Of a stretch of DNA of 64,000 nucleotides, positions 15,372 through 16,391 are shown one piece after another. The DNA comes from an uncultured Acidimicrobiales bacterium. GTDB lineage: Bacteria > Actinomycetota > Acidimicrobiia > Acidimicrobiales > Aldehydirespiratoraceae. Location: assembly GCA_951812975.1 (NCBI GenBank), contig CATOTC010000001.1, forward strand, positions 744,001-808,000, written 5' to 3'. A program made the position numbers and the translations under genes. The notes beneath the pieces are model-generated. The model did no database searches. It was not told where the DNA came from and saw only the letters and a list, made by a program, of their open reading frames with translations. The stretch's first letter is position 1. Each line of letters starts with the position of its first letter.

Positions 15372-16391
15372 ATGCCGTCAACATTGTTCAGCCTTCTCAA
15401 AGACTCGATATCTCGAGACGAGGTAGCAAGCACTGCCGAGGATCACGAGCGCCGGTTCGACACCACCGGTGACGACGACCCGCGCGAGAGCGGCAACCAC
15501 GAGCTCGTCACCGGTTACTACAAACTGGTCACCGACTTTTACGAGTACGGCTGGGGCAAGTCCTTCCATTTCGCGCCGCGGCATTCAAATGAGAGCTTCG
15601 AGGCTTCTCTGACTCGCCATCAGCACTTCATCGCCTACAAGCTCGGCCTCAAACCCGGCATGCGTGTGGCTGACTTCGGTTGTGGTGTCGGCGGTCCGCT
15701 GCGGGAGATCGTCAGCTTCACCGGCGCCAACGTGGTCGGCATCAACATCAGTTCGTACCAACTCGATCTTGCACGGAAATACACCAAGGAAGCCGGGCTG
15801 AGCGACTTGGCGGAATACCTCGAGTGCAACTTCATGGACGTTGACGCTCCCGACAACTCCTTCGACGCCATCTACGCGATCGAGGCGACGGTTCATTCAC
15901 CCGATGCCGTCGCCGTGTTCAGCGAAGCTCGGCGTCTGCTGAAGCCCGGTGGTTGCTTCGCCTCATACGAGTGGTGCCTCACCGGCAAGTTCGACGCGGA
16001 TGATCCGCACCACGTCCAGCTCAAGAAGGACATCGAGTTCGGTTCAGCGACGCCGGACCTGCGCTACATCCACGAAGTGGACGCGGCGTTGGTGCAGTCC
16101 GGTCTCGAAATCGTCGAGACACGCGACCTCACAGACCAGACTGCAGCCGGTATTCCGTGGTATCAGCCATTGGTCGGATCCGGCATCTCCCTCGCCGGGT
16201 TCCGCAGCTCGAACGTGGGCCGGGCAGTGACCCATCGCTCTCTGCGCGCCTTCGAGAAGGTCAAGGTCGTCCCCGCCGGGGCGTCGGAGGTTGCTCGACT
16301 CCTCAATGTCGCCGCGGACGCCCTCGCCGAGGGAGGCCGAATGGAGATCTTCACGCCGATGTACTTCGTGCTTGCCCGCAAGCCCGAGTAA
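15372..16391 (+). CDS. Sterol 24-C-methyltransferase (Erg6/SMT)-like SAM-dependent methyltransferase
   Basis: YYKLVTDFYEYGWGKSFHFAPR...ESFEASLTRHQHFIAYKLGLKPGMRVADFGCGVGGPLREI, AIYAIEATVHSPDAVAVFSEARRLLKPGGCFASYEWCLTGKFD, IPWYQPL, GRMEIFTPMYFVLARKPE: SMT-specific motifs including the C-terminal SMT domain. Confidence 0.88.
   Translation: MPSTLFSLLKDSISRDEVASTAEDHERRFDTTGDDDPRESGNHELVTGYYKLVTDFYEYGWGKSFHFAPRHSNESFEASLTRHQHFIAYKLGLKPGMRVADFGCGVGGPLREIVSFTGANVVGINISSYQLDLARKYTKEAGLSDLAEYLECNFMDVDAPDNSFDAIYAIEATVHSPDAVAVFSEARRLLKPGGCFASYEWCLTGKFDADDPHHVQLKKDIEFGSATPDLRYIHEVDAALVQSGLEIVETRDLTDQTAAGIPWYQPLVGSGISLAGFRSSNVGRAVTHRSLRAFEKVKVVPAGASEVARLLNVAADALAEGGRMEIFTPMYFVLARKPE

What the first reader, a model, noticed from the sequence alone, without database searches (positions are those of the whole stretch)
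15372..16391. Bacterial homolog of eukaryotic sterol 24-C-methyltransferase (Erg6/SMT)
Seen: YYKLVTDFYEYGWGKSFHF, ADFGCGVGGPLREIVSFTGANVVGINIS, IYAIEATVHSPDAVAVFSEARRLLKPGGCFASYEW, IPWYQPL and the terminal FTPMYFVLARKPE. Established: these match, from memory of Erg6, the sterol-binding and SAM motifs (YEYGWG, IEATCHAP, YEWVMTDKYD, IPWYYPL, LFTPMMLFVARKPE), including the C-terminal SMT domain that mycobacterial lipid and tocopherol methyltransferases lack. C-24 alkylation is usually treated as eukaryotic and underlies sterane biomarkers; some bacterial SMTs have been reported. Inference: with no squalene epoxidase or oxidosqualene cyclase in the window, the enzyme may alkylate scavenged sterols or act on another isoprenoid.
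Basis: partly seen in the sequence, partly recalled or inferred. Interest (0 to 1): 0.88.

Follow-up and report, generated by a model that had tools for sequence, protein, structure and literature searches.

The report
Symbiont enzyme that methylates scavenged sterols
A bacterium whose nearest named relatives live in sponges carries a genuine-looking copy of the enzyme that fungi and plants use to decorate sterols, yet its genome lacks the genes to make sterols, so it probably remodels sterols taken from elsewhere, which matters because such decorated sterols are read as fossil evidence of early animals and algae.

Summary
The ORF is real: 339 aa, window 15372-16391 (+), with Methyltransf_11 and Sterol_MT_C (84.5 bits, cut-off 21.7), 42% identical to yeast Erg6, canonical SMT residues kept. 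It lies in a strongly supported all-bacterial SMT clade (100/99). Bacterial SMTs are published (Brown 2023, tested in vitro; SMT1/ERG6 enriched in Ircinia symbionts, 2022), so the gene alone is a new member of a known family.

What I did not find described: the genome (3.0 Mb, 93% complete) and all five congeners lack squalene/phytoene synthase and oxidosqualene/squalene-hopene cyclase, yet this genome holds two ERG4/ERG24-type sterol reductases and a cluster of a GPP34-cytochrome P450 fusion, an RND transporter with a sterol-sensing domain, a KshA-type Rieske oxygenase and a flavin oxidoreductase. In Chloroflexota MAGs the same parts plus a divergent SMT form one cluster. The fusion occurs in 45 of 50 SMT-bearing genomes from many phyla; only about 12 of 50 have an oxidosqualene cyclase. 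Among 61 relatives all 10 SMT genomes have it, 49 of 51 others do not.

Most likely this SMT methylates C-24 of sterols taken from outside, probably a sponge host, as part of a horizontally shared sterol-remodelling module. Substrate and product are inferred.

The parts
15372..16391 (+). sterol 24-C-methyltransferase homolog ('type A' SMT), 339 aa
   Evidence: ORF; Pfam PF08498 84.5 bits, PF08241 71.8 bits; 42% identity to yeast Erg6; clade support 100/99
15540..15557 (+). YEYGWG, sterol-binding region I (yeast Y81-E82-Y83-G-W-G)
   Evidence: alignment with Erg6 and soybean SMT
15672..15962 (+). SAM-binding Methyltransf_11 domain, residues 101-197, including GCGVGGP
   Evidence: Pfam; alignment
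15879..15902 (+). IEATVHSP motif (yeast E195, H199 kept)
   Evidence: alignment
16152..16172 (+). IPWYQPL motif
   Evidence: alignment
16197..16388 (+). Sterol_MT_C domain, residues 276-339
   Evidence: PF08498
6378..21107 (.). block of neighbouring genes shared with the orthologous SMT locus of congener G001 (L013, MAG SB0670_bin_1); the SMT is a settled chromosomal gene inside a 1.71 Mb contig
   Evidence: shared gene clusters #59-#65, #21, #9, #22 around SMT in L013

Best explanation
The gene encodes a SAM-dependent sterol C-24 methyltransferase of a bacterial SMT clade. The cell cannot make sterols itself; it takes in sterols from outside (for this genus probably a sponge host) and the SMT adds a methyl group to a delta-24 side chain, as Erg6 does. 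The same genome carries a remodelling set that most likely acts on the same molecules: an RND transporter with a sterol-sensing domain (uptake or sorting), a flavin oxidoreductase and a KshA-type Rieske oxygenase plus a GPP34-P450 fusion (side-chain or nucleus oxidation or desaturation; the GPP34 part may hold the P450 at a membrane), and two ERG4/ERG24-type reductases (nuclear or delta-24(28) double bonds). Shown: sequences, domains, conserved residues, absence of squalene synthase and cyclases, co-occurrence and clustering. Inferred: substrate, product, step order, uptake, host origin of the sterol.
For: PF08498 and PF08241; residues equivalent to yeast Y81, E82, Y83, D125, Y153, E195, H199, E246, D276 kept; clade support 100/99. 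No PF13249 or PF00494 hit in this genome or in any of six genomes of the genus; no CYP51-like P450 at E<=1e-40. Two ERG4/ERG24 proteins whose best solved relative is a delta-14 sterol reductase (4quv, E 6e-28 and 3e-26). Cluster GPP34-P450 / RND-SSD / FAD / Rieske at G000:C5 187-194 kb; in congener G001 the orthologous cluster contains an SMT between RND and fusion. Whole set in one cluster in a Chloroflexota MAG (L169) and similar ones. Fusion in 45/50 SMT genomes, 10/10 SMT-positive and 2/51 SMT-negative relatives (Fisher 7e-10, not phylogeny-corrected). Five further fusion copies adjoin an oxidosqualene cyclase. Functional bacterial SMTs shown in vitro by others (PMC10070321).
Against: No biochemical test. 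In this genome the SMT is not physically next to the module. The MAG is 93% complete. The type A SMT protein has not been matched here to any SMT tested by Brown et al. The two reductases, Rieske and flavin proteins are only family-level matches (the reductases score about half of one in a true cyclase cluster: 115 vs 243 bits). The sponge origin of this very genome is inferred from relatives.
Confidence: 0.66

Rival explanations
1. The enzyme is an SMT-family protein that now methylates a different isoprenoid or polycyclic lipid made by the bacterium, not a sterol.
For: No sterol pathway in the genome; some active-site neighbours differ (post-I GINISSYQ versus GLNNNDYQ); a divergent type B SMT in related clusters shows that the family can change its active site.
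Against: All canonical SMT motifs kept in type A; genus lacks hopanoid cyclase and squalene synthase too; co-occurrence with ERG4/ERG24 reductases, sterol-sensing RND, KshA-type Rieske and, elsewhere, oxidosqualene cyclase.
Confidence: 0.14
2. The bacterium makes sterols de novo and the missing genes fall in the unassembled 7%.
For: Completeness 93.4%; sister genus g5 does have the squalene synthase pair and an oxidosqualene cyclase with DCTAE motif.
Against: Squalene/phytoene synthase and cyclase are absent from all six genomes of the genus, 90-98% complete; CYP51-like P450 absent too.
Confidence: 0.06
3. The gene set is catabolic: host sterols are oxidised for carbon (KshA-like Rieske, P450), and the SMT is incidental or primes the side chain.
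For: Rieske proteins carry the KshA C-terminal domain, best solved relative KshA.
Against: The one further Rieske neighbourhood examined shows no steroid-ring degradation genes; reductases and methylation are anabolic in character. No KstD/HsaC search was done.
Confidence: 0.12
4. Contaminating or mis-binned eukaryotic (sponge or algal) sequence.
For: SMTs are best known from eukaryotes.
Against: Inside a 1.71 Mb bacterial contig, intronless, GC3 0.774 versus window mean 0.772, same gene order in a congener, tree places it in a bacterial clade.
Confidence: 0.01

Closest known systems
Sterol 24-C-methyltransferase (Erg6/SMT1/SMT2)
   Same: Domain layout Methyltransf_11 + Sterol_MT_C, motifs YEYGWG, GCGVGGP, IEATxHxP, PWYxPL, FTPM; 42% identity to yeast Erg6
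   Different: Bacterial clade separate from fungal and plant SMTs; organism lacks sterol synthesis genes
Bacterial SMTs of Brown et al. 2023 (PMC10070321) and SMT1/ERG6 of Ircinia symbionts (PMC9531527)
   Same: SMTs in uncultured bacteria, many from sponges; the Chlamydiae SMT also came from a MAG without other sterol genes and was suggested to act on host sterols
   Different: Their synthesis clusters are OSC/CYP51/ERG24/sdmAB; here there is no OSC and the companions are GPP34-P450, KshA-type Rieske, FAD, RND. Actinobacteria are not mentioned in the 2023 text
Bacterial sterol cluster osc-cyp51-erg24-sdmA-sdmB
   Same: An ERG4/ERG24-family reductase, a P450 and a Rieske enzyme take part; clusters of this kind are seen here in L034, L084/L162 and others
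   Different: Module Rieske is not SdmA (38.9 bits versus 409 for a cluster SdmA, cut-off 600); P450 is a GPP34 fusion; no cyclase in most of the genomes
BstA/HpnN/NPC1-type RND transporters
   Same: MMPL family with sterol-sensing/Patched SSD matches; the periplasmic domain of BstA binds sterols (PMC10942540)
   Different: Scores far below NCBI's HpnN cut-off (128 vs 752 bits); substrate untested

Membership tests
Sterol 24-C-methyltransferase (SMT) | Sterol_MT_C domain PF08498 above gathering cut-off | tested here: met
   84.5 bits vs 21.7
Sterol 24-C-methyltransferase (SMT) | Class I SAM methyltransferase domain | tested here: met
   PF08241 71.8 bits; AlphaFold2 model pLDDT 77, best folds are small-molecule SAM methyltransferases
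Sterol 24-C-methyltransferase (SMT) | Conserved sterol-binding/catalytic residues (yeast Y81, E82, D125, E195, D276 and PWY motif) | tested here: met
   (residue list recalled from the Erg6 literature)
Sterol 24-C-methyltransferase (SMT) | Groups with SMTs and not with other methyltransferases in a tree | tested here: inconclusive
   Firmly within the SMT set and apart from fungi/plants; no non-SMT outgroup was included. Curated phthiotriol/cyclopropane/UbiE models score far below cut-off
Sterol 24-C-methyltransferase (SMT) | Methylates a delta-24 sterol | not testable with these tools
   needs an enzyme assay
De novo bacterial sterol synthesis | Squalene synthase | tested here: not met
   PF00494 absent from own genome and genus
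De novo bacterial sterol synthesis | Oxidosqualene cyclase | tested here: not met
   PF13249 absent
De novo bacterial sterol synthesis | CYP51 | tested here: not met
   one bacterial CYP51-like query, E<=1e-40
ERG4/ERG24 sterol reductase | PF01222 above cut-off | tested here: met
   115 and 114 bits vs 27
SdmA C-4 sterol demethylase (module Rieske) | NF052579 above cut-off | tested here: not met
   38.9 bits vs 600

The most novel reading that the evidence does not exclude
Sponge symbionts of several phyla share, by horizontal transfer, a dedicated sterol-remodelling system (two SMT types, a GPP34-P450 fusion, KshA-type Rieske, flavin oxidoreductase, ERG4/24 reductases, sterol-sensing RND transporter) that works on host sterols without any bacterial sterol synthesis; a sizeable part of the unusual alkylated sponge sterols read as animal biomarkers would then be joint host-symbiont products.
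Probability: 0.4. Interest if true: 0.85.

Novelty: new variant of a known kind. Interest (0 to 1): 0.62.

Why it matters
C-24 alkylated steranes are used to date algae and animals; published bacterial SMTs were mostly discussed as parts of de novo pathways. Here SMT occurs without any sterol synthesis in a whole genus, and most SMT-bearing genomes sampled lack an oxidosqualene cyclase, so absence of a cyclase does not exclude a bacterial hand in sterol side chains. The GPP34-P450 fusion is an untested candidate sterol enzyme that tracks SMT across phyla and gives a direct handle for enzymology and for locating symbiont sterol remodelling in sponges.

Tried and rejected
Reading the ~350-bit PF13249 hits as sterol cyclases: rejected, they carry the squalene-hopene DXDD motif, the ~150-bit ones the OSC DCTAE motif. 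Sterol catabolism: Rieske locus L120 shows only generic beta-oxidation genes. Module Rieske as SdmA: rejected. Neighbouring genes of the window as a sterol cluster: sulfate permease, GDPD, VanY, nitronate monooxygenase, luciferase-like monooxygenase, P450, SDR, amidohydrolases - nothing sterol-specific. Fold prediction of the GPP34-P450 fusion failed (pLDDT 50) and was not searched. Fold search of the SMT returned only generic small-molecule methyltransferases; a sequence search with yeast Erg6 found no solved full-length SMT in the PDB copy. A paper search for a GPP34-P450/sterol link found nothing relevant.

Full report
Observation. Pfam gives Sterol_MT_C 84.5 bits and Methyltransf_11 71.8 bits, both above cut-off. 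It is the only PF08498 protein in the genome; none of 14 control genomes has one. It aligns with yeast Erg6 at 142 identical of 336 columns (the Erg6 letters were recalled and then confirmed as 100% identical to database protein P0121). The residues equivalent to yeast Y81, E82, Y83, D125, Y153, E195, H199, E246 and D276, and the PWY motif, are kept (choice of residues from memory of the Erg6 literature). Curated phthiotriol-, cyclopropane- or UbiE-type models score far below their cut-offs.

Placement. A maximum-likelihood tree of 75 SMTs puts it with the syntenic gene of a congener (G001 = MAG SB0670_bin_1), in a clade of 45 bacterial sequences (Actinomycetota, Chloroflexota, Pseudomonadota, Acidobacteriota, Nitrospirota, Nitrospinota, Gemmatimonadota, Binatota) with support 100/99, separate from fungi and soybean (99/96). 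I call this clade type A. A second clade, type B (100/100), has lost the Y-E pair of region I (M-V), Y153 and E246, but still passes PF08498. Eukaryotic sampling is thin (fungi and soybean) and no non-SMT outgroup was used, so nothing is claimed on the origin of eukaryotic SMTs.

No sterol synthesis. The genome (3.02 Mb, 6 contigs, 93.4% complete) has no squalene/phytoene synthase family protein and no squalene-hopene/oxidosqualene cyclase; the same is true of all five other genomes of the genus, 90-98% complete. A bacterial CYP51-like query found nothing in the genus. The sister genus g5 does have the squalene synthase pair and, in most species, an oxidosqualene cyclase with the DCTAE motif. 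So within one family SMT occurs both with and without a synthesis pathway.

Companions. The genome has two ERG4/ERG24 proteins (G000:C3 290.7-291.8 kb; C5 22.0-23.1 kb; 66% identical to each other), best solved relative a delta-14 sterol reductase. At G000:C5 187-194 kb (locus L119) lie a 675-aa fusion of a GPP34 domain and a cytochrome P450, an RND/MMPL protein with sterol-sensing and Patched-type matches, a flavin amine-oxidase-like protein and a Rieske oxygenase with the KshA C-terminal domain. In G001 the same locus, with the same flanking genes, has a type B SMT between the RND and fusion genes. In Chloroflexota MAGs (L169, L192, with most parts in L189) RND, SMT type B, fusion, Rieske, flavin protein and two ERG24-like genes form one cluster. 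In Nitrospinota (L045), an unclassified bacterium (L048), Alphaproteobacteria (L041, L049) and Nitrospirota (L059) type A SMT itself lies beside members of the set. Over 45 fusion loci, 37 have the Rieske, 23 the flavin protein, 23 an RND and 17 an SMT (13 type B, 6 type A, two loci with both) within 8 kb (the type was assigned by the region I motif, and a few atypical or unread motifs were counted as B). Five other fusion copies, 44-52% identical, adjoin an oxidosqualene cyclase and an RND, which ties this P450 to sterols independently.

Co-occurrence. Of 61 relatives, SMT is in 10 and the full-length fusion in 12, including all 10; ERG4/ERG24 is in 10, sharing 9. Fisher tests are extreme (7e-10, 6e-9) but ignore shared ancestry. 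Of 50 genomes chosen because they carry an SMT, 45 have the fusion and 31 have any PF13249 protein; by bit score, calibrated with motifs on eight sequences, about 12 of those 50 have an oxidosqualene cyclase and most of the rest of the hits are squalene-hopene cyclases. Completeness of these 50 is not given and they are a selected sample.

How it probably works. The simplest account is that external sterol is taken up or sorted by the RND system, oxidised or desaturated by the Rieske, flavin and P450 enzymes, methylated at C-24 by SMT from SAM and reduced by ERG4/24-type enzymes. An SMT needs a delta-24 sterol (established for SMTs); which enzyme would supply it from a saturated host sterol is unknown (the flavin or P450 enzyme would be a guess). 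Habitat: the closest named relatives are Candidatus Poriferisodalis/Poriferisocius and Acidimicrobiia MAGs with sponge-survey style names; that the window's own organism lives in a sponge is inferred.

Comparison. Functional bacterial SMTs, among them three that make 24-isopropyl side chains, and their clusters with cyclase, CYP51, ERG24 and sdmAB were reported in 2023 (PMC10070321); the same paper suggests that a Chlamydiae SMT without other sterol genes may act on host sterols. SMT1/ERG6 enrichment in Ircinia symbionts was reported in 2022, with a cyclase-CYP51-ERG24 cluster also seen in Acidimicrobiia (PMC9531527). BstA, an RND protein binding sterols in Methylococcus, is known (PMC10942540). 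I found no paper in the held library that describes the GPP34-P450 fusion or its link with SMT; subscription papers and preprints are not in it. Hence: gene = new member of a known family; setting = new variant.

Noticed in passing
L119:3129-5156 (G000:C5 187.1-189.2 kb): Fusion of a GPP34 (Golgi phosphoprotein 3) domain with a cytochrome P450; at least 120 close homologs, all with the same two domains; tracks SMT across phyla.
   Followed up: yes
L123:12910-13953, L169:7306-8370, L045:1717-2751 and others: A divergent second SMT clade (type B) that keeps the Sterol_MT_C domain but has lost the Y-E of the YEYGWG motif, Y153 and E246; may have another substrate or reaction.
   Followed up: partly
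L157, L158, L159, L160, L161: A second GPP34-P450 copy with an RND gene next to an oxidosqualene cyclase in genomes that do make sterols; may stand in for CYP51, which a CYP51-like query did not find in G027.
   Followed up: partly
window 18923-20197 (-), 24577-25773 (+), 41297-42535 (-): Three further cytochrome P450 genes, beside luciferase-like monooxygenases, amidohydrolases and SDRs; substrates unknown.
   Followed up: no
window 3983-6235 (+): S41 peptidase with an S-layer homology (SLH) domain, 750 aa.
   Followed up: no
L015:4760-7970 and orthologs L016-L019, L021, L081: Next to type A SMT in another Acidimicrobiia group, a conserved pair: a 612-aa protein without any Pfam match and a DUF3179 protein.
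   Followed up: no
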